Shown here: positions 391-31,434 of the stretch, piece after piece | Layout of the letters: each line of letters opens with the position of its first letter | Position numbering within the stretch: the stretch's first letter is position 1 | DNA from: Paenibacillus sp. JZ16 | Lineage (GTDB): Bacteria > Bacillota > Bacilli > Paenibacillales > Paenibacillaceae | DNA: 64,000 bases | Reading direction: 5' to 3' | Assembly (NCBI RefSeq): GCF_015326965.1 | Contig: NZ_CP017659.1 | Span: forward strand, 7,019,001 to 7,083,000 | Notes under the pieces: generated by a model | The model's database searches: none | Seen by the model: the letters and a program-made list of their open reading frames with translations, nothing else | What the model was told of the DNA's origin: nothing | Made by a program: the position numbers and the translations under genes

Positions 391-590
391 AAGAGGCGGT
401 ATCGCCATGAGCGAATTGCACTCTTCAGCAAGTGGCAATGAACATTTTTTTAGAACACCTTCATAACTGTTATGCCGGTTACGTTGGATTCTGCTCTGAG
501 CCGAAAGGACCGAGACAGAAGGGACGATCGCGAGTGACTCTTTTTTGCCTTTCGGACTTTTTAGCAAGTATGTGCTAAAAGGTTTTTTTT
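391..590 (+). promoter_or_regulatory. Structured 5' leader of panBCD, probable attenuator
   Basis: Between the candidate promoter and panB lies a leader of about 200 bases with several hairpins: GGCG/CGCC near 397-407, a long-range pair CCGAAAGG (501-508) with CCTTTCGG (548-555), and immediately after it an intrinsic terminator at 557-590. A terminator inside the leader, 40 bases before the start codon, is the architecture of transcription attenuation. A conserved 'pan' RNA motif upstream of panB is known in Firmicutes, Chloroflexi and Deltaproteobacteria; I could not verify its consensus here. No T-box core (GGTGGTACCGCG) is present. Confidence 0.5.
557..590 (+). terminator. Intrinsic terminator in the pan leader
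   Basis: CTTTTTAGCA (557-566) pairs with TGCTAAAAGG (573-582) across a six-base loop and is followed by eight T. It sits upstream of panB rather than after an operon, so it is probably conditional, although it also lies 212 bases after the birA stop. Confidence 0.75.
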
Positions 591-22946: not shown

Positions 22947-23603
22947 TTACTTGGATCCGGCTGCATTCAGAAGCAGACGACGGTAGGCGTATTCGAATAT
23001 AAACTCAAATGCCTCCAGATGTTTCTTGGCTTCGAATGCATTTTTGCCCCAGGCATAGATGCCGTGGTTACGCAGCAATATGCCGGGTACCGCAGGATCG
23101 AGCGCATCCGGAACGAGCTCTGCAATCCGTGGAATCTCTGCGTAGTTCGGCAGGATCGGAATGCGAATCGCGGCGTCCTCTTCCCAAATATTAAAGGCTT
23201 TGATCAGCTCGATTCCTTGGGCAGGGACATAACCTTGTTCCCCATACCAATCGCTGATCAGATTGTTATCAATGGTGTGCACATGGAAAATGGCACCGCA
23301 GCCGGTCTTGCGATAAATTTCGCAGTGAATCAAGGTTTCCGCGCTAGGTTTTAAGCCGGTTGCTTCGCAAGGCACGCCGTTCTGATCCACAAAAAGATAA
23401 TCTTCAGGCGTATGTACCGACTTGTCTTTTCCGCTGGCTGTCACCGCAAAATAAAACTGCTCCGGGTTGAACTCGCCAACACGGACAGATAGATTACCGC
23501 TGGTGCCGGGGAACCAGTTTCTAGAAGCGAACAGTTCCTTGATCCCTCTAAGATCCTGCAGGGCAGCTTGTTTCTGTTCAAGCTGGATATCTGAAAATGC
23601 CAC
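22947..23603 (-). CDS. mtnB: Methylthioribulose-1-phosphate dehydratase
   Basis: MtnB, a class II aldolase-fold zinc enzyme, dehydrates 5-methylthioribulose-1-phosphate to diketo-methylthiopentyl-1-phosphate in methionine salvage. The 218 residues show NWFPGTSGNLSVR, KPSAETLIHCEIY, the zinc ligands in IFHVHT, and ILLRNHGIYAWG. The start is GTG directly after the mtnX stop (TAA-GTG), behind AGGAGGTG inside mtnX. It is the last gene of the proBAC-mtnWXB operon. Confidence 0.92.
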   Translation of the reverse strand: MAFSDIQLEQKQAALQDLRGIKELFASRNWFPGTSGNLSVRVGEFNPEQFYFAVTASGKDKSVHTPEDYLFVDQNGVPCEATGLKPSAETLIHCEIYRKTGCGAIFHVHTIDNNLISDWYGEQGYVPAQGIELIKAFNIWEEDAAIRIPILPNYAEIPRIAELVPDALDPAVPGILLRNHGIYAWGKNAFEAKKHLEAFEFIFEYAYRRLLLNAAGSK

Positions 23604-24284
23604 TTACAGCACCTCCTGTTTAAACTTGTCTTTCATGTCGTTCTGGATATCGGTAAATGTCTCGAAGGGTACATGATGTACGCCTATCTTCCTGCATTGC
23701 TCGGTGAGCGATGAGCGGGAATAAACCAGATCCGCTTGCTTGGCACCTTCAAAATCGGTCAGGCTGTCACCGATCAGAATGCGGTAATACCGGTCGGCCG
23801 GAAAACGGTCCATCACCGTGACCTTGCACATGCCGCAGTCGTTATGGCAGGATTCCTTGCAAGGATGAGGCCAGGTAATCTCAATGTGATCCCCTTCGAA
23901 ATTGGAGCCGTTGCAGAAGATATGGTCTGCCGGGATGCCAAAAGGCTTCAGCAGAGGATCGACAAAGAAATCGATGCCGCCGCTTGTAACGTAGAATTCA
24001 ATCTGTTCGGATTTTAAATAATCCAGGAATGCACTGAAGCCTTCCCGAATCCCTGCATGGTTTAGAACATATTCGGTAATTTCTTCTCTCATGGAGGAAG
24101 GGAAGAGCGCGAACATGCGGCCTACGCCTTCCCGAATTGAAATGGTGCGGTCAAGCGTGTCCTGCATGATCGACTCAAAGCCTTCCGGTTTGAAGTGCTT
24201 CATAATGGCGACGATGTTATCGTTGTTTGTGATGGTTCCGTCGAAATCACAAAAAATGATCGGCTGTTTATCTCCAGATGTCAT
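23604..24284 (-). CDS. mtnX: 2-hydroxy-3-keto-5-methylthiopentenyl-1-phosphate phosphatase
   Basis: MtnX removes phosphate from the product of MtnW to give the acireductone. The 226-residue HAD-type protein has motif I FCDFDGTITNND, motif II VTSGGIDFF, and motif IV IGDSLTDFEGA, with the cysteine-rich insert CKESCHNDCGMCK characteristic of MtnX. It overlaps mtnW by four bases. Confidence 0.93.
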   Translation of the reverse strand: MTSGDKQPIIFCDFDGTITNNDNIVAIMKHFKPEGFESIMQDTLDRTISIREGVGRMFALFPSSMREEITEYVLNHAGIREGFSAFLDYLKSEQIEFYVTSGGIDFFVDPLLKPFGIPADHIFCNGSNFEGDHIEITWPHPCKESCHNDCGMCKVTVMDRFPADRYYRILIGDSLTDFEGAKQADLVYSRSSLTEQCRKIGVHHVPFETFTDIQNDMKDKFKQEVL

Positions 24285-25495
24285 ACTTCTCCTCCCCAGA
24301 TGTCCAATGCGGCTTTCAGCTCTTCGTGTTCCTCGGCAAAGTGGGCGAGTGGCACGGATTTCATCGTCGCCTCGATCGCTTGTACAAAGGCTTTGCCGCC
24401 CGCTTCGGTTCCCATCGGATGTCCGTGGATTCCGCCGCCAGCGTTAACGACCACATCGGTGCCAAAGTCCCGGATGATGCGGGGAACGAGTCCAGGATGA
24501 ATTCCTGCGGATGGTACCGGCATGCTTCGTTTCACGCCAAGTTTAGCGCTGTGCAGCTCGTCGCGTATCGCGAGATTCTCTTCTCTCGGCATCGTTACCG
24601 ATCCGTAAGGAGAAGGGAAGAGCACCAGATCCGCGCCGGCAATCCGCATCAGCTGGCCGAGCAGCAGCGGAGCCGTTATCCCATAGTACGGAGAAGGATA
24701 AATGGCCCCGGCAAGCGCAGGGTGAGCCGCAATAGGCACGGTGATATCCGGATCACTGCTTAACTCTTGCAAAACGTCATACCCATAGGACAGCACATTA
24801 AAGAGCAGGGCGTTAGCGCCGGCATCAATCGCACGCAGCGCTTGCTCACGCAGCCTCGACGTCCGTCCGGTCAGATTGGCTGCATACAGCAGTTTTTTGC
24901 CTGTCTGTTGTTCCACGTCGGCAGCAGCCTGGATGCACATGCTGACCCGTTTTTCGATTGGGGTGAGGTCGTTCTCGAACAGGATTTCATCATCTTTGAT
25001 AAGATCCACCCCACCAAGCGCCTGACGGATAAATTGGGCTCTAAGCTCGTCCGCATTCAGTCCGATTACTGACTTGAATATGCTCATGAGCAGAGGGCGG
25101 TCATGGACGCCGAGTAGATCGCGGACTCCGTCGATGCCATATTTCGGTCCGGGAAACGCACTCAAGAAGTCGGGAGACAAATCCAGGGAAGTCAGTTTGA
25201 TGCGCCCGTCCATGGAAATTTTGCCGAACACGGTCACCAGCAGGGCTGGGATATCCCGGCTGAAATTAATGTCCGGATAAGCAATGCTGACGTCCGCATA
25301 CCGGCTGCCTGGCTCCCAGCCCTCGTGAACCTGAATGTCAACAACTTCGCCAAGATGCTTCTGCATCGCTTCACGCTTGGCTTGCGGCAGCTCGGTCCAG
25401 CTGCCGACCGTCATGCCAACGGCGATGGAAGTCGCCTTCTTACGAAAATCCGCCTGGTCGTCATAGATTCGGTACGTTGCGATACAGCGGCTCAT
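24281..25495 (-). CDS. mtnW: 2,3-diketo-5-methylthiopentyl-1-phosphate enolase (RuBisCO-like protein)
   Basis: MtnW is the RuBisCO-like enolase of the Bacillus-type methionine salvage pathway. The 404 residues include the metal-site block GGVDLIKDDE, the first-lysine region KYGIDGVRDLLG, and FPSPYGSVTMPREEN replacing true RuBisCO loop residues. It overlaps proC by four bases (ATGA), which places methionine salvage in the proline operon. MtnW/MtnX separate enzymes replace the MtnC fusion used elsewhere. Confidence 0.94.
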   Translation of the reverse strand: MSRCIATYRIYDDQADFRKKATSIAVGMTVGSWTELPQAKREAMQKHLGEVVDIQVHEGWEPGSRYADVSIAYPDINFSRDIPALLVTVFGKISMDGRIKLTSLDLSPDFLSAFPGPKYGIDGVRDLLGVHDRPLLMSIFKSVIGLNADELRAQFIRQALGGVDLIKDDEILFENDLTPIEKRVSMCIQAAADVEQQTGKKLLYAANLTGRTSRLREQALRAIDAGANALLFNVLSYGYDVLQELSSDPDITVPIAAHPALAGAIYPSPYYGITAPLLLGQLMRIAGADLVLFPSPYGSVTMPREENLAIRDELHSAKLGVKRSMPVPSAGIHPGLVPRIIRDFGTDVVVNAGGGIHGHPMGTEAGGKAFVQAIEATMKSVPLAHFAEEHEELKAALDIWGGEV

Positions 25496-26361
25496 GAGAT
25501 CTGCTCCTTCAGCATGGCGCCCATTTCTTTGGAACGCTCAGCACAGCGGTTCACGGCGGCAATGACGGTTTCGAAGAAATCGCCTTTATCGAGCGTTTCG
25601 AGGGCCGCTTGCGTTGATCCGTTCGGCGATGTAATTTTCGCACGAAGCGATGAAGGCTGTTCCCCGGTCTGCTGCACCATCCGGGCGGCGCCCAGAATGG
25701 TTTGGAGTGTCAGCTCGCGGCTTTGTTCCGGCGTCAAGCCGCCGCGGATCCCTGCGGCAGTCATGGCTTCCATCATGTAATAGAAGTAAGCCGGACCACT
25801 GCCGGATATACCGGTCAGGATATCCATCTTCTCTTCTTCAATGACCGTTACATTACCAACAGCTTCGAACAAGGTCATGACCAGTTGGCGCTGTTCTTCG
25901 CTGATTTCCTTCGAGAACGCGATTCCTGTGGAACCAAGCCCGATGGAGGCGGATGTATTCGGCATCGTACGTGCAATGGGCTGCTGGGTTCCAAGCAGCG
26001 TCTGCGTCGTATAAATCGAAAGTCCGGCAATCACGGAGATGATCAATTGATCGCTTGAGAGCTTCGGTCCCAGTTCTTTTAACGCTTTAGCAGCATCCTT
26101 CGGTTTCATGGCAAGCACGATCACCGGTGAAGTTTTCAGAATTTCGATTTTAGCGGCATCGTCGTTATTGATCTGGACACCATAGCGCTCACTCAGTTCC
26201 TGAAGGCGTTGAACATTGCTCCGATTAAGCATCGTAATATTCTCAGGAAGCACGACAGAACGGCTGACTAATCCTCGTACGATCGCTTCGGCCATCGAGC
26301 CGGCGCCGTAGAAGGTGATTGCTTTATCTATTAAAGGTCGGTTCTGCGGGGATTGGCACAT
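25492..26361 (-). CDS. proC: Pyrroline-5-carboxylate reductase
   Basis: ProC reduces pyrroline-5-carboxylate to proline with NAD(P)H, the last step of proline synthesis. The 289 residues contain FYGAGSMAEAIVRGL (Rossmann motif), VLAMKP, and the signature block GISGSGPAYFYYMMEAM, followed by TSPNGSTQAALE. AAAGGAGGAAAT precedes the start. It is 35 bases downstream of proA and overlaps mtnW. Confidence 0.95.
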   Translation of the reverse strand: MCQSPQNRPLIDKAITFYGAGSMAEAIVRGLVSRSVVLPENITMLNRSNVQRLQELSERYGVQINNDDAAKIEILKTSPVIVLAMKPKDAAKALKELGPKLSSDQLIISVIAGLSIYTTQTLLGTQQPIARTMPNTSASIGLGSTGIAFSKEISEEQRQLVMTLFEAVGNVTVIEEEKMDILTGISGSGPAYFYYMMEAMTAAGIRGGLTPEQSRELTLQTILGAARMVQQTGEQPSSLRAKITSPNGSTQAALETLDKGDFFETVIAAVNRCAERSKEMGAMLKEQIS

Positions 26362-26396
26362 CGTTATTTCCTCCTTTATGGCTTTAGATGAATGAT

Positions 26397-27644
26397 TTAT
26401 TCGCGTATTTGACCACTACCGATAATAACATATTTGGAGGAAGTAAGCGCGGGTAATCCCATAGGACCTCTGGCATGCAGCTTCTGGGTGCTGATCCCGA
26501 TTTCGGCGCCGAAGCCAAATTCAAAGCCATCGGTGAAACGGGTCGAAGCGTTATGATAAACAGCAGCTGCGTCTACTTCCTGCAAGAAGCGCTGCGCATG
26601 ATCCTTATCCTCCGTAACGATACATTCCGAATGCTTTGTGCCATTAATCGAAATATGCTCAATGGCCTCATCCAGGTGATCCACGATTTTGATGTTTAAG
26701 ATATAGTCGTTGTACTCGGTAGCGTAATCCTCAGACGTCGCTTTTACAGCCCAAGGAACGTAATCCAGGGTACGCTGACATCCTCGCAGCTCGACGTTAC
26801 GCTCGCGGAATGCTTCAGCCAGCACGGTCAGATGTGATTTGGCATAATCAGCATGGACGAGCAGGGTTTCCATGGAATTGCAGACCGAAGGGCGCTGCAC
26901 CTTGGCATTGAGACTGATGGCAACTGCCATGTCCGGCTCTGCCGATGCATCTATATAGGTATGACATATCCCGGCTCCGGTTTCGATCACGGGCACCGTG
27001 GCATTTAACACAACGTTCTGGATCAGCGAGCTCCCGCCGCGAGGGATAATGACATCCAGCAGTCCGTTGAGCTTCAGCATTTCATCCACGGAGGAACGGT
27101 TCGGGTCCTCGATAAGCTGAAGCGCATCCTTAGGCAGTGCGGTGCGTTCCATAGCTTCGTGAAGCACCTCGATGATTTTGCGGTTGGAGGAGAGGGCGGA
27201 AGAACCCCCGCGGAGTACGACCGCGTTGCCTGTCTTCAAGCACAGTCCGGCTGCATCGACCGTCACATTTGGACGTGCTTCATAAATGATGCCGATCACG
27301 CCAAGGGGAACACGTTTCTTGACGATGTTCAGTCCGTTCGGGCGATCGATCGTTTCCAAGGTGTCGCCGATTGGGTCCGGCAGCTTCACGATTTGGCGTA
27401 AGCCTTCGGCAATGCCCTCGATTCTGGTTTCATTCAGTGCCAATCGGTCCAGGAGGGAGGCGGAGGTGCCAAGCTCCTTCCCACGACGTAGATCCTCCGC
27501 GTTTGCTTCCATAATATCAGCTGTCCGTTGGATCAGTGCGTCTGCCATGATGAGCAGAGCCTGATTTTTCTCCTCGGTGCTCAGTCTGCCAAGACCGAAT
27601 GCGGCCTGTTTGGCCAGCTTGGCTTTATTGCGAACCTCACTCAT
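26397..27644 (-). CDS. proA: Gamma-glutamyl phosphate reductase
   Basis: ProA reduces glutamyl 5-phosphate to glutamate semialdehyde. The 415-residue aldehyde-dehydrogenase-fold protein has the expected blocks: PLGVIGIIYEARPNVT, LRGGSSALSSNR, the catalytic cysteine region QRPSVCNSMETLLVH, and HARGPMGLPALTSSK at the C-terminus. It follows proB by 57 bases and precedes proC by 35, with no terminator in either gap. Confidence 0.96.
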   Translation of the reverse strand: MSEVRNKAKLAKQAAFGLGRLSTEEKNQALLIMADALIQRTADIMEANAEDLRRGKELGTSASLLDRLALNETRIEGIAEGLRQIVKLPDPIGDTLETIDRPNGLNIVKKRVPLGVIGIIYEARPNVTVDAAGLCLKTGNAVVLRGGSSALSSNRKIIEVLHEAMERTALPKDALQLIEDPNRSSVDEMLKLNGLLDVIIPRGGSSLIQNVVLNATVPVIETGAGICHTYIDASAEPDMAVAISLNAKVQRPSVCNSMETLLVHADYAKSHLTVLAEAFRERNVELRGCQRTLDYVPWAVKATSEDYATEYNDYILNIKIVDHLDEAIEHISINGTKHSECIVTEDKDHAQRFLQEVDAAAVYHNASTRFTDGFEFGFGAEIGISTQKLHARGPMGLPALTSSKYVIIGSGQIRE

Positions 27645-27701
27645 AATAATTCCTCCTTAGATGGATGATTAGGAAAAGCATTATTGGTTATGGGAACCAG
27701 A

Positions 27702-28805
27702 TTATTTTAACGTGATCCATTCATCTCGGTGAATGACCTCAAGCCGATGGATTTCCCCGATGATGCCGATCACTTGACTGCTCGGCAAACCGAGCACGGC
27801 TTGCAACTGGTCCTCATCGTAATTGACGATCCCCCTGCCGAGCCTTTCGTTGTTCATATTAACGACTTCCACCACGTCCCCGGCATGGAAGCTGCCTTCG
27901 ATCCGTTTAATGCCAACGGGAAGGAGGCTGTGGCCTCCGTGAATCAGCGCCTTCTCGGCGCCCGGATCGACAACGATCCGGCCTAGCGGCGAGGACATAA
28001 AGCCGAGCCACTGCTTTTTCATCGGCAGAGAGGATAGGTGGGTAGCAAAATAGGTGCCTTTACCTGCATGCTCAAGCGCCTTAAGCAAATCGCCGGTCTC
28101 GCTGGCTTTGCCAACGAAGACGGGGACACCGCCGCGGGTGGCGATTTTGGCAGCATCGATTTTCGATCGCATGCCGCCTGTACCTACGCTGGAACCAGCG
28201 CCTCCTGCCATGCTGTAAATCTCATCGGTAATTTCATCAATTTCCTCATATTTCGTTGCATCCGGCGACTTGCGTGGATCAGCCGTGTACAAACCATCCG
28301 TATCGGTCAGGATGATTAATTGCTGGGCGCGGACCAAGTTCGCAACCAGAGCGGATAACGTATCGTTATCGCCAAATTTCAGTTCGTCAATGGAAACGGT
28401 GTCGTTCTCATTAATAATCGGAATAACGCCTTGCTTCAGAAGCTCCGTAATCGTCATGTTGGCATTATTCATGCGTTTGCGGTTCGCGAAGTCGCCTCTC
28501 GTCAACAGAATTTGCGCGGCCTTCAATTGATGGGAGGCCAGCGCATTCTGGTAAGCACGCATCAGCAGCGCTTGGCCCAGTGCGGCGGATGCTTGCTTCT
28601 CATGCAGCAGCTTCGGTCTGCTCTCGTAGCCGATCTCTCGAAACCCTGCTGCGACGGCGCCGGATGTCACGAGCAGAACCTCATGACCGGCTTTGCGGAG
28701 AGCGGCAAGCTCTCCGGCAAAGAAGGCGATGGAATCAAGATTAAGTCCGCCCTCGTCTGTCGTAAGGGAGCTGCTTCCGATTTTTACGACGATGCGCGAT
28801 AGCAT
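27702..28805 (-). CDS. proB: Glutamate 5-kinase
   Basis: ProB phosphorylates glutamate and is the feedback-controlled entry to proline. The 367 residues contain the kinase domain (VVKIGSSSLT at the start, VTSGAVAAGFREIG, INENDTVSIDELKFGDND, GGMRSKIDAAKIAT) and a C-terminal PUA domain. The frame stays open a further 119 codons upstream, through the T-box leader, but AAGGAAGTGATC places the start at the ATG whose first base is 28805. Expression is governed by the proline T-box upstream. Confidence 0.95.
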   Translation of the reverse strand: MLSRIVVKIGSSSLTTDEGGLNLDSIAFFAGELAALRKAGHEVLLVTSGAVAAGFREIGYESRPKLLHEKQASAALGQALLMRAYQNALASHQLKAAQILLTRGDFANRKRMNNANMTITELLKQGVIPIINENDTVSIDELKFGDNDTLSALVANLVRAQQLIILTDTDGLYTADPRKSPDATKYEEIDEITDEIYSMAGGAGSSVGTGGMRSKIDAAKIATRGGVPVFVGKASETGDLLKALEHAGKGTYFATHLSSLPMKKQWLGFMSSPLGRIVVDPGAEKALIHGGHSLLPVGIKRIEGSFHAGDVVEVVNMNNERLGRGIVNYDEDQLQAVLGLPSSQVIGIIGEIHRLEVIHRDEWITLK

Positions 28806-28864
28806 CGTGATCACTTCCTTGTATTTATGATGGGTAGGTATAGCTGTAACGAATCCATTTCCTG

Positions 28865-29127
28865 AAAACAAAAAAACTTTCGTCCTGTATGAAAAAGGAC
28901 GAAAGTTTGACTTCCGCGGTACCACCTTTGTTGATGAGCGCAGCTCATCCGGCTTTAACCCTGTAACAGAAGGCACTGTCCTGGCAAGCCAGGCCGCTCG
29001 GGGGTAGGTTTCGGAAAGGGGGTCACGGCAAATTCTTTCAGCCCATGGAATTCGCTCTCTGGTCATCGTGCCATATGCTTTCGTACTGGTCCCGTCATTG
29101 CGTTTTTGAAAACTGCATTCAATTGTT
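28865..29127 (-). promoter_or_regulatory. T-box riboswitch, proline (CCU) specifier, controlling proBAC-mtnWXB
   Basis: On the minus strand the leader has the T-box core AAAGGTGGTACCGCGG (28914-28929), which binds the tRNA acceptor end, followed by the terminator hairpin at 28874-28908. Stem I contains the AGTA and GAGAGCGA elements and ends CCGAAACCTACCCCCGAGC, where CCT at 29006-29008 stands in the specifier position. CCU reads proline and matches the adjacent genes. Uncharged tRNA-Pro would stabilise the antiterminator and allow transcription of the six-gene operon. Confidence 0.92.
28874..28908 (-). terminator. T-box terminator hairpin
   Basis: On the minus strand AAACTTTCGTCCT pairs with AGGACGAAAGTTT around a nine-base loop and continues into a T run. 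The competing antiterminator uses the T-box core just upstream. Confidence 0.9.
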
Positions 29128-29133
29128 ATTGCA

Positions 29134-29162
29134 AGAATAGCACATCGTTTTTGTTTTTTCAA
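29134..29162 (-). promoter_or_regulatory. Promoter of the proB T-box transcript
   Basis: Read on the minus strand: TTGAAA (29157-29162), 17-base spacer, TATTCT (29134-29139), with TG one base before the -10 (extended -10). It lies between the mtnE stop and the T-box. Confidence 0.75.
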
Positions 29163-29173
29163 AAGGAAAAAGG

Positions 29174-30367
29174 TTAACCGAACAGGTTCAGCTTGCCGAT
29201 TCGGTAGGCGGCTTCCTGCATTCGCTCTTCGCTGCTTAACAGGCCGACGCGGACATATCCTTCGCCGTGATCGCCAAAGCCGACACCAGGCGCAACCGCG
29301 ACCTTGGCCTCCTCAAGCAGCAGATCGGCAAAGGATACCGAAGTAAAGCCCTTCGGTACCGGCAGCCAGCTGAAAAAGGAGCCAGCCGGTTTTTGAGCTT
29401 CCCAGCCGATTTCGGACAGGGCGCCATAGAAGGCATCCCTTCTCGATTGGTAGCGTGCCACCAACTCCTCAACGCAGTCTTGCGGCGAGGTGAGAGCCGT
29501 GGCCGCTGCTGCCTGAATGCCGCCGAACAGGCTGACATAGATGTGGTCCTGCAGCATATTGATCAGCGAGATGATTTTTTTGTTCCCCAGGGCAAAGCCA
29601 ACGCGCCATCCGGCCATATTATAGGTTTTGGAGAGCGTGTAAAATTCCACGCCAACTTCTTTGGCTCCTTCTGCCTGCAAAAAGCTGACTGGACGATCTC
29701 CATCAAACCCGATCGCTCCATAAGCAAAATCGCTGGCTACAACGATCCCGTGTTCGGCGGCGAATGCTACCGTATCCTCGTAGAAGGACAGGGGAGCGAC
29801 GGCGGATGTCGGATTATTCGGGTAATTTAAGAACATCAGCTTCGCTTTTTCTCTGTCTGCTGGTGTGATCGCGCCATAGTCGGGAAGAAACCGGTTCGCA
29901 GCGGTTAACGGCATGAATTTCATCTGGGCACGGGCCAGTGCAACGCCTGACCAGTAATCCGGATAACCGGGGTCCGGGACAAGACATACATCGCCCGGAT
30001 TCAGAAGCACTTGCGGAAGCTGTACAAGCCCTGTTTTTCCTCCAAACAGAATCGCTACCTCCGTCTCCGGATCCAGATCCACGTTGTAGTCTTCCTTATA
30101 TCGATGCGCAATGGCTTCTTTAAGAAAGGAAAAGCCGGTAAAAGGCGAATATTTGTGAAACTGCGGATTGTCGGCCGCTTCCTTCAAGCTGGATACGATA
30201 TGAGGCGGTGTGGGCTGATCGGGATTTCCCTGTCCGAGATTGATCACATCATGTCCCTGCGCCACTTGGCGGTTTACCTTGGAGACCAAGGTCGCGAAAA
30301 ATTGCGTGGGCAGCTGGGACATCATCTCGGCCGGCTCTATTTGGAATTCGTTTAATTTGTTGTTCAT
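29174..30367 (-). CDS. mtnE: PLP-dependent aminotransferase, probable methionine-salvage transaminase
   Basis: This 397-residue class I/II aminotransferase has GKTGLVQLPQVLLNPGD, the NYPNNPTSAVAP loop, VASDFAYGAIGFDG, and the PLP lysine in SKTYNMAGWRVGF. MtnE transaminates 4-methylthio-2-oxobutanoate to methionine and is about 398 residues in Bacillus; the divergent mtnU and nearby mtnWXB support that role. Other PatA-like aminotransferases look similar, so the substrate is inferred from context. No SAM riboswitch was found upstream. Confidence 0.8.
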   Translation of the reverse strand: MNNKLNEFQIEPAEMMSQLPTQFFATLVSKVNRQVAQGHDVINLGQGNPDQPTPPHIVSSLKEAADNPQFHKYSPFTGFSFLKEAIAHRYKEDYNVDLDPETEVAILFGGKTGLVQLPQVLLNPGDVCLVPDPGYPDYWSGVALARAQMKFMPLTAANRFLPDYGAITPADREKAKLMFLNYPNNPTSAVAPLSFYEDTVAFAAEHGIVVASDFAYGAIGFDGDRPVSFLQAEGAKEVGVEFYTLSKTYNMAGWRVGFALGNKKIISLINMLQDHIYVSLFGGIQAAAATALTSPQDCVEELVARYQSRRDAFYGALSEIGWEAQKPAGSFFSWLPVPKGFTSVSFADLLLEEAKVAVAPGVGFGDHGEGYVRVGLLSSEERMQEAAYRIGKLNLFG

Positions 30368-30621
30368 TGCAGTTTCATCACTCCGTTATCTAATTACGCT
30401 CGAATACAGCTGATATTGAAAACAATTAGGATTAATTTAACACGATTTATCAGGGGTGTATAGAGGGAAATGGTGCTTGGGTGTTGCAGCAACAGGGCGG
30501 GGGAGGCTATGATGATGACATATAGAGAACGGATGAATTCCTGAAAAAGAGCCCGATCATGGATTTCATGATTACATCGGCGCTGGTGCTGGATTCAACC
30601 GGAATAACAGGAGGCTGCAAG

Positions 30622-31434
30622 ATGACTGGAGAAGCAAAGGCTCAATTGAATATCGCACTTATCCAAGCCGATATTGAAATAGGAAACGTAAAGGCCAATA
30701 TGAGTAAAATGCTCGGCATGATGGAGCAGGCCGCAGCGGCTGATAGGAAGCCGGACGTCATCGTGCTGCCGGAAATGTGGAATACGGGGTATGCGCTGGA
30801 CCGAATTCAAGAGCTTGCCGATCCCATGGGACAGGAAACCTCTCGCATGCTGAGCGAATTTGCACGAAAACATCGTATTCAAGTCGTAGGCGGGTCTGTA
30901 GCCGAACGAATCGAAGATCGGATTTATAACAGCATGTATGTATTTAACCGGAGCGGGGAGCAGATCGCCAAATATTCCAAAATTCACCTGTTCCGCCTGA
31001 TGGATGAAGAGAAGTTTCTGCAAGCTGGGCAGCAGCCCGTAACCTTTGAGCTGGAACAATTAAAAGCGGGCGCGTCGATCTGTTACGATATACGGTTCCC
31101 CGAGCTGTCCCGCACCCTCGCACTCGGCGGCGCTCAAGTGCTGTTTGTGCCAGCGGAGTGGCCGCATCCGCGACTGCATCATTGGAGAACGCTGCTCATG
31201 GCCAGAGCGATCGAGAACCAAATGTATGTCGTTGCGTGTAATCGAGTTGGAACCAGCGGAGAAACGGGCTTTTTCGGCCACTCCATGATCATCGATCCAT
31301 GGGGGGAGGTCATTGCCGAAGGGGATGAGCAGGAAATGATCCTGACCGGTACGCTGGATTGCGGTCTTACGGATGAAGTGAGAGGACGCATTCCGGTTTT
31401 TGAAGACCGCCGTCCGAATTTGTATTTTCAATAA
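30622..31434 (+). CDS. mtnU: Carbon-nitrogen hydrolase, MtnU-type (omega-amidase-like)
   Basis: The 270-residue nitrilase-superfamily protein has the catalytic triad Glu in VLPEMWNTGY, Lys in YSKIHLFR, and Cys in ASICYDIRFPEL. MtnU/YkrU is linked to methionine salvage in Bacillus, and related omega-amidases hydrolyse 2-oxoglutaramate, the by-product when glutamine donates nitrogen to MtnE. CAGGAGG at 30609-30614 sets the start at ATG 30622; an upstream in-frame ATG at 30559 lacks a site. Divergent from mtnE, with 254 bases between them. Confidence 0.8.
   Translation: MTGEAKAQLNIALIQADIEIGNVKANMSKMLGMMEQAAAADRKPDVIVLPEMWNTGYALDRIQELADPMGQETSRMLSEFARKHRIQVVGGSVAERIEDRIYNSMYVFNRSGEQIAKYSKIHLFRLMDEEKFLQAGQQPVTFELEQLKAGASICYDIRFPELSRTLALGGAQVLFVPAEWPHPRLHHWRTLLMARAIENQMYVVACNRVGTSGETGFFGHSMIIDPWGEVIAEGDEQEMILTGTLDCGLTDEVRGRIPVFEDRRPNLYFQ

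What the first reader, a model, noticed from the sequence alone, without database searches (positions are those of the whole stretch)
22947..29162. A proline T-box appears to control an operon that joins proline synthesis to methionine salvage
Seen: promoter TTGAAA-N17-TATTCT, T-box core AAAGGTGGTACCGCGG, specifier CCT at 29006-29008, then proB-proA-proC-mtnW-mtnX-mtnB all on one strand, with gaps of 57 and 35 bases and then overlaps of four bases or direct abutment. No second promoter, terminator or SAM riboswitch was seen inside. Known: T-boxes respond to uncharged tRNA; mtn genes in Bacillus are usually under SAM riboswitches. Inference: methionine salvage enzymes here rise with proline starvation, or internal promoters uncouple them. 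A metabolic reason is not obvious.
Basis: partly seen in the sequence, partly recalled or inferred. Interest (0 to 1): 0.75.

Follow-up and report, generated by a model that had tools for sequence, protein, structure and literature searches.

The report
Proline T-box inside methionine-salvage gene cluster
In a Paenibacillus genome and its relatives, an RNA switch that senses proline-tRNA and the proline-making genes sit in the middle of the methionine-recycling genes, in the place where other bacilli often carry a SAM-sensing switch, so the two pathways are probably switched together.

Summary
A proline-specifier T-box (28892-29107, minus strand) with its own promoter and terminator heads proB-proA-proC-mtnW-mtnX-mtnB. 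The order is not local: of 153 Paenibacillales mtnW loci examined (some species twice), 152 have proC and one has proA next to mtnW. Of 138 loci analysed for the leader, 132 carry the T-box core, each with a proline specifier. In 20 Bacilli loci chosen outside the order, none has pro genes beside mtnW; 14 have a SAM riboswitch directly before mtnW, six of them between mtnE and mtnW, the slot that T-box-proBAC occupies here. No SAM riboswitch was found near mtnW or mtnK in the Paenibacillales checked. In 15 same-genus loci without mtnE and mtnWXB, T-box-proBAC remains. Best reading: an ancient operon insertion displaced SAM control and put mtnWXB under a proline tRNA attenuator. Transcription was not measured; a candidate promoter at the end of proA could partly uncouple the genes.

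The parts
30559..31434 (+). mtnU, nitrilase/omega-amidase family gene, divergent from mtnE
   Evidence: Amidohydrolase/nitrilase-type NCBIfam matches, all below their cut-offs; named MtnU from its place beside mtnE, where genes 47% and 53% identical also lie in L204 and L206
30425..30470 (-). conserved block in the mtnU-mtnE intergenic region, possible promoter/operator; approximate limits
   Evidence: Nearly invariant in an alignment of the window and six relatives; exact motif only here in the genome, not seen before mtnK or mtnD
29174..30367 (-). mtnE, aminotransferase of methionine salvage, directly upstream of the T-box promoter
   Evidence: PRK08068 transaminase 657 bits, cut-off 494; 64-68% identical genes next to mtnW or its SAM riboswitch in 9 of 20 outgroup loci
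29134..29162 (-). promoter TTGAAA-17-TATTCT of the T-box leader
   Evidence: a promoter-like match in 91 of 132 relatives' leaders against 1.3 expected in base shuffles, also present in L176, L192 and L193, which have no mtnE
28892..29107 (-). T-box leader RNA, proline type
   Evidence: RF00230, 93.3 bits, E 4e-19
29006..29008 (-). specifier codon CCU (proline)
   Evidence: Rfam alignment; in an alignment with 132 relatives' leaders the same columns read CCU in 108 of 133, CCC in 24, CCA in one
28914..28929 (-). T-box core AAAGGTGGTACCGCGG (5' side of antiterminator)
   Evidence: core with at most 2 mismatches in 132 of 138 loci
28874..28908 (-). intrinsic terminator stem followed by a run of T; its 5' arm is shared with the antiterminator
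   Evidence: Fold -16.5 kcal/mol, z -4.7; terminator-like hairpin in 127 of 132 relatives' leaders against 0.4 expected
27702..28805 (-). proB, glutamate 5-kinase
   Evidence: TIGR01027, 448 bits
26397..27644 (-). proA, glutamate-5-semialdehyde dehydrogenase
   Evidence: NF001221, 612 bits
26409..26450 (-). candidate internal promoter inside the 3' end of proA (TGTTATTAT at 26430-26422)
   Evidence: Lowest synonymous variability of 2225 windows over seven genes in the window and six close relatives; not conserved in wider relatives; not found by the sigma-70 scan
25492..26361 (-). proC (ProI-like), pyrroline-5-carboxylate reductase
   Evidence: TIGR00112, 268 bits, over its cut-off
24281..25495 (-). 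mtnW, diketo-methylthiopentyl-phosphate enolase; overlaps proC by 4 bases
   Evidence: TIGR03332, 544 bits
23604..24284 (-). mtnX phosphatase; overlaps mtnW by 4 bases
   Evidence: NF007103, 331 bits, cut-off 292; TIGR03333 273 bits, below its cut-off of 303
22947..23603 (-). mtnB dehydratase; abuts mtnX
   Evidence: TIGR03328, 194.5 bits, cut-off 137; NF005244, 281.6 bits, cut-off 281

Best explanation
A proline T-box attenuator plus proBAC was inserted, in an ancestor of Paenibacillales, into the methionine-salvage cluster between mtnE and mtnWXB, taking the slot held by a SAM riboswitch in many other Bacilli. Transcripts from the T-box promoter, and any that read through from mtnE, meet the T-box terminator. 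When tRNA-Pro is charged most stop there; when uncharged tRNA-Pro pairs with the CCU specifier and the antiterminator, transcription continues through proBAC into mtnWXB. So mtnWXB has lost SAM control and is, at least in part, set by proline charging. Shown by sequence: the T-box with specifier, promoter-like site and terminator; the gene order; its conservation; the SAM riboswitch in the slot in outgroups. Inferred: ancestry and direction of the insertion, co-transcription through mtnWXB, readthrough from mtnE, and the response in the cell.
For: T-box, specifier, terminator and promoter-like site in the window. Pro genes directly before mtnWXB in 80 of 80 named Paenibacillales loci, with proB in reach in 79 and mtnE upstream in 78. 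T-box core before proB in 79 of 80, at most one mismatch. proC adjacent to mtnW in 30 of 30 small loci, 20 of 20 order-level loci, 17 of 18 further family loci, the other having proA, and 5 of 5 same-genus loci with mtnW. proC-mtnW spacing, measured from alignment starts, has a median of 4.5 bases and is at most 30 in 112 of 122 loci. Proline specifier in 132 of 132 leaders; antiterminator 3' arm in 132 of 132 and terminator-like hairpin in 127 of 132. Outgroups: pro genes beside mtnW in 0 of 20; SAM riboswitch directly upstream of mtnW in 14 of 20, six of them between mtnE and mtnW. No SAM riboswitch over gathering score in 14 Paenibacillales loci scanned, nor near mtnW in the 18 genomes for which I had both places; none within 20 kb of mtnK in 35 genomes. 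In 15 same-genus loci without mtnE and mtnWXB, T-box core and proBAC remain in 15 of 15.
Against: No transcript data. A candidate internal promoter at the 3' end of proA could drive proC-mtnWXB in the P. lautus clade. Two order-level loci have proB-proA-proC-mtnW but no T-box core before proB (L148, L155). The Rfam score only just passes the gathering score; in 14 relatives' loci scanned only six T-box matches reach it, one of them the farther of two cores in L138. The T-box persists without mtn genes, so it can be maintained for proBAC alone. Six of 20 outgroups lack a SAM riboswitch before mtnW, three of them with mtnE directly next to mtnW, so a plain mtnE-mtnW ancestor is also possible. 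The whole-genome SAM search of 56 genomes used stricter filters that lose some weak matches.
Confidence: 0.66

Rival explanations
1. The gene order is real but regulation is uncoupled: an internal promoter (e.g. at the 3' end of proA) or readthrough from the mtnE promoter gives enough mtnWXB at all times, and the T-box matters only for proline synthesis.
For: The 3' end of proA (26450-26409) has the lowest synonymous variability of 2225 overlapping windows in the window and six close relatives, 0.43 against a mean of 1.65 (sd 0.38), and holds TGTTATTAT. T-box-proBAC persists without mtn genes. mtnK-mtnA and mtnD in this genome have no SAM riboswitch or T-box in front, so loose control of salvage may be tolerated.
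Confidence: 0.27
2. Proline-methionine co-regulation is adaptive: a shared need (for instance glutamate/glutamine use or stress) makes salvage useful when proline is short.
For: Conservation over many genera and six families of the order.
Against: I found no metabolic link; conservation could follow from translational coupling. At least 20 same-genus genomes lack mtnW, and 15 same-genus loci keep the T-box and proBAC without mtnE and mtnWXB.
Confidence: 0.15
3. The leader is a chance match or a decayed T-box without function.
For: Score 93.3 against a gathering score of 93.
Against: Core, proline specifier, antiterminator, terminator and promoter-like site are kept in relatives; B. subtilis proBA and proI have tRNA-Pro-responsive T-boxes (PMC9245794, passages).
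Confidence: 0.02

Closest known systems
T-box leaders of B. subtilis proBA and proI
   Same: tRNA-Pro-responsive transcription control of proline synthesis genes (PMC9245794, passages seen)
   Different: There the regulated units are proBA and proI; here the unit sits inside an mtn cluster and runs on into mtnWXB
SAM riboswitch-controlled mtnWXBD and mtnK of Bacillus (e.g. B. methanolicus)
   Same: Same mtnW-X-B gene run (PMC4342826 lists (SAM)-mtnW-mtnX-mtnB-mtnD and (SAM)-mtnK, passages seen; L204 here)
   Different: Here no SAM riboswitch, mtnD lies elsewhere, and T-box-proBAC stands between mtnE and mtnW
Methionine genes under methionine T-boxes in Firmicutes (Lactobacillales regulon; Staphylococcus aureus)
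   Same: A T-box governing methionine-related genes (PMC3766115, passage; PMC3771891 seen only as a search listing with the start of its abstract)
   Different: Those are described as methionine or initiator-tRNA T-boxes; here the specifier is proline

Membership tests
T-box leader (RF00230) | covariance model match over the gathering score | tested here: met
   93.3 against 93 bits, full length
T-box leader (RF00230) | conserved core and antiterminator exclusive with an intrinsic terminator | tested here: met
   kept in relatives
T-box leader (RF00230) | specifier codon cognate to the downstream gene function | tested here: met
   CCU = proline, next genes proBAC
T-box leader (RF00230) | response to uncharged tRNA | not testable with these tools
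   Needs an experiment
Methionine salvage operon mtnWXB(D) | MtnW, MtnX, MtnB enzymes encoded in order | tested here: met
   NCBIfam
Methionine salvage operon mtnWXB(D) | mtnD at the end of the operon | tested here: not met
   The only ARD-family (MtnD) match in the genome is at G000:C1:7161047, beside a metH-like gene by my reading of its translation
S-box (SAM riboswitch) regulon | SAM riboswitch upstream of mtnW or mtnK | tested here: not met
   Only two RF00162 matches in the genome, before metN-like and metA-like genes by my reading of the translations
Single operon proBAC-mtnWXB | one transcript across all genes | not testable with these tools
   Only spacing, overlap and conservation seen

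The most novel reading that the evidence does not exclude
Across the order Paenibacillales, methionine salvage left SAM control and came under the charging state of tRNA-Pro, through insertion of a T-box-proBAC operon into the SAM riboswitch slot: an order-wide exchange of one RNA sensor for an unrelated one, with a physiological link between proline supply and methionine recycling.
Probability: 0.33. Interest if true: 0.75.

Novelty: new variant of a known kind. Interest (0 to 1): 0.57.

Why it matters
It appears to be a deeply conserved case in which an operon insertion exchanged the RNA sensor of a metabolic pathway for a sensor of an unrelated amino acid. It makes testable whether riboswitch regulons are rewired adaptively or by position alone. 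It also cautions against assigning function from the leader: a proline T-box in Paenibacillales may govern methionine enzymes. The genomes that lost the mtn genes on both sides of proBAC are natural controls.

Tried and rejected
A SAM riboswitch missed near the mtn genes: rejected, two in the whole genome, both elsewhere. A plasmid origin of the block: no match in the plasmid collection in near mode. A shared DNA motif for all salvage genes: the block between mtnU and mtnE was not seen before mtnK or mtnD; the genome search (up to 2 mismatches) gave one exact hit, here, one with a single mismatch at 3167683, not followed, and 42 with two. A promoter directly before mtnW: the sigma-70 scan gave 9 promoter-like sites in 8.5 kb against 7.7 expected, none on the operon strand within 1 kb upstream of mtnW; synonymous constraint at the end of proC is weaker than at the end of proA. 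A first crude test for a T run after the core (68 of 132) was uninformative because of where it looked and was replaced. Two pattern searches for the specifier read 91 and 131 of 132, in part out of register; they are replaced by the alignment (all 132 relatives CCN; L164 reads CCA there, with a CCC one base before). My promoter pattern found 91 of 132 leaders; many of the 41 others are L030-like loci, and L030 reads TATGTT at the -10.

Limits of the survey. 217 of 295 family genomes and 184 of 246 order genomes have mtnW, sets that overlap; I looked at 153 loci, not all. Two further families of the order (G333, G334) had mtnW but their places were not listed, so they were not looked at. Several species occur twice; of 132 leaders 124 are distinct over their last 230 bases. 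The 20 outgroup loci were chosen by me across families; eight of them score below the MtnW cut-off but have mtnX and mtnB beside mtnW. For G492 and G493 (L192, L195) absence of mtn genes was seen at the locus only.

Literature: ten full-text searches listed no paper that describes this arrangement as far as titles and starts of abstracts show; Paenibacillus with mtnW, and Paenibacillus with SAM riboswitch and methionine salvage, gave no paper. The library holds only open-licence papers, and two searches matched over a thousand papers of which 15 and 12 were listed.

Full report
What is there. The window is a stretch of a 7.42-Mb single-contig genome; its MtnW is 99% identical to those of Paenibacillus lautus NBRC 15380 and Paenibacillus sp. 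EZ-K15, so it is a P. lautus-like organism (inference). On the minus strand run mtnE (30367-29174), a T-box leader (29107-28892), proB, proA, proC, mtnW, mtnX and mtnB, with mtnU divergent upstream. The T-box matches RF00230 over its full length at 93.3 bits, gathering score 93. Its -35 begins after 11 bases from the mtnE stop codon, its specifier is CCU, and its terminator folds at -16.5 kcal/mol, z -4.7. No terminator-like site was found between mtnE and the T-box, so transcripts of mtnE probably run into the T-box.

Conservation inside the order. Of the 80 named loci closest by MtnW, 80 have proC and proA before mtnW, 79 reach proB, 78 have mtnE upstream, and 79 have the T-box core with at most one mismatch. 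All 30 small loci with the best MtnW scores of the family survey have proC next to mtnW. So do 20 of 20 loci from five other families of the order and 17 of 18 from genera of the window's family; the eighteenth (L164) has proA next to mtnW and no proC found there. Five of five same-genus loci with mtnW also do. Of 138 loci analysed for the leader, 132 have the core. Four cannot show proB, three because the contig ends (L088, L143, L171) and one because of masked bases (L145); two (L148, L155) have proB but no core. Aligned to the window, the specifier columns read CCU in 108 of 133 rows (window included), CCC in 24 and CCA in one. All 132 have the antiterminator's 3' arm and 127 a terminator-like hairpin against 0.4 expected in shuffles; the five misses show an interrupted or long-looped hairpin before a T run when read by eye. 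proC and mtnW lie a median of 4.5 bases apart, with a range of -4 to 232.

What stands there elsewhere. Of 20 mtnW loci that I chose from Bacilli outside the order, none has pro genes next to mtnW. In 14 (L196, L200-L206, L208-L212, L215) a SAM riboswitch directly precedes mtnW, and in six of these (L202, L203, L204, L206, L212, L215) mtnE lies directly before it. In seven of the 11 loci that show mtnK, a SAM riboswitch precedes mtnK too. L197, L207 and L214 have mtnE next to mtnW without one; L198, L199 and L213 also lack one. A B. methanolicus transcriptome lists (SAM)-mtnWXBD and (SAM)-mtnK (PMC4342826, passages). In this genome there are two SAM riboswitches, one before a metN-like and one before a metA-like gene by my reading of the translations. 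In the 18 relatives for which I had both places, the SAM riboswitches are on other contigs or far from mtnW, and in 35 genomes none is within 20 kb of mtnK, the nearest being about 23 kb away. So neither mtn unit shows SAM control here.

A natural control. One search lists 20 genomes of the window's own genus without mtnW and six with it; 58 further genomes without a match were not listed. In 12 of those lacking it, chosen for that reason, and in three more (L192, L193, L195), the locus holds the T-box and proBAC without mtnE or mtnWXB; a LysR-family gene lies upstream in 15 of 15, as in the window, and a sigma-factor gene downstream is found in six. mtnU is kept in two (L186, L192). In those 12 genomes MtnK is also absent over the cut-off, whereas the eight same-genus genomes with mtnW that I could compare all have it; one genome without mtnW (G266) keeps an MtnK match. 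So the salvage pathway tends to be lost as a whole from around an intact T-box-proBAC, and the T-box can be held by the proline genes alone.

Relation to known systems. Proline T-boxes before proBA and proI are known in B. subtilis (PMC9245794, passages) and methionine T-boxes before methionine genes are known in Firmicutes (PMC3766115, passages). A transcriptome of P. riograndensis reports, among the leaders it confirmed, T-boxes before serA and valS and a SAM riboswitch before metA (PMC5670726, passages), which neither supports nor contradicts this. A survey of T-boxes has no mention of proline by name, mtn or Paenibacillus in its main text (PMC2494555, find). The parts are all known kinds; the combination, and the exchange of a SAM riboswitch for a proline T-box across an order, I did not find in print (ten searches, listed under tried and rejected).

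Noticed in passing
window 393-522 (+): A pan motif RNA (RF01749, 38.7 bits), recalled as a leader of pantothenate synthesis genes.
   Followed up: no
window 30425-30470: A block in the mtnU-mtnE intergenic region nearly invariant in the window and six relatives; possible shared promoter or binding site. One single-mismatch match elsewhere in the genome, at 3167683.
   Followed up: partly
L148 (G375), leader before proB: A promoter-like site and a terminator hairpin are seen but the T-box core is not found: possibly a decayed T-box in front of an intact proBAC-mtnWXB run.
   Followed up: no
L138 14074-18448: Two T-box cores in a 4.4-kb stretch between mtnE and proB; the farther one scores 97 bits in Rfam.
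   Followed up: no
L157 9518-10054 (-): The genome's only mtnD lies divergent to a metH-like gene, far from mtnWXB.
   Followed up: no
L146, L147, L153 (between proB and proA); L079 (between proA and proC): Extra stretches of 1.6-1.8 kb inside the pro genes, content not examined.
   Followed up: no
L164 10635-10720: proBA-mtnWXB with no proC found between proA and mtnW.
   Followed up: no
L202 5328-5454 (-): A Bacillaceae-1 RNA match (38.9 bits) between the SAM riboswitch and mtnW in an outgroup locus.
   Followed up: no
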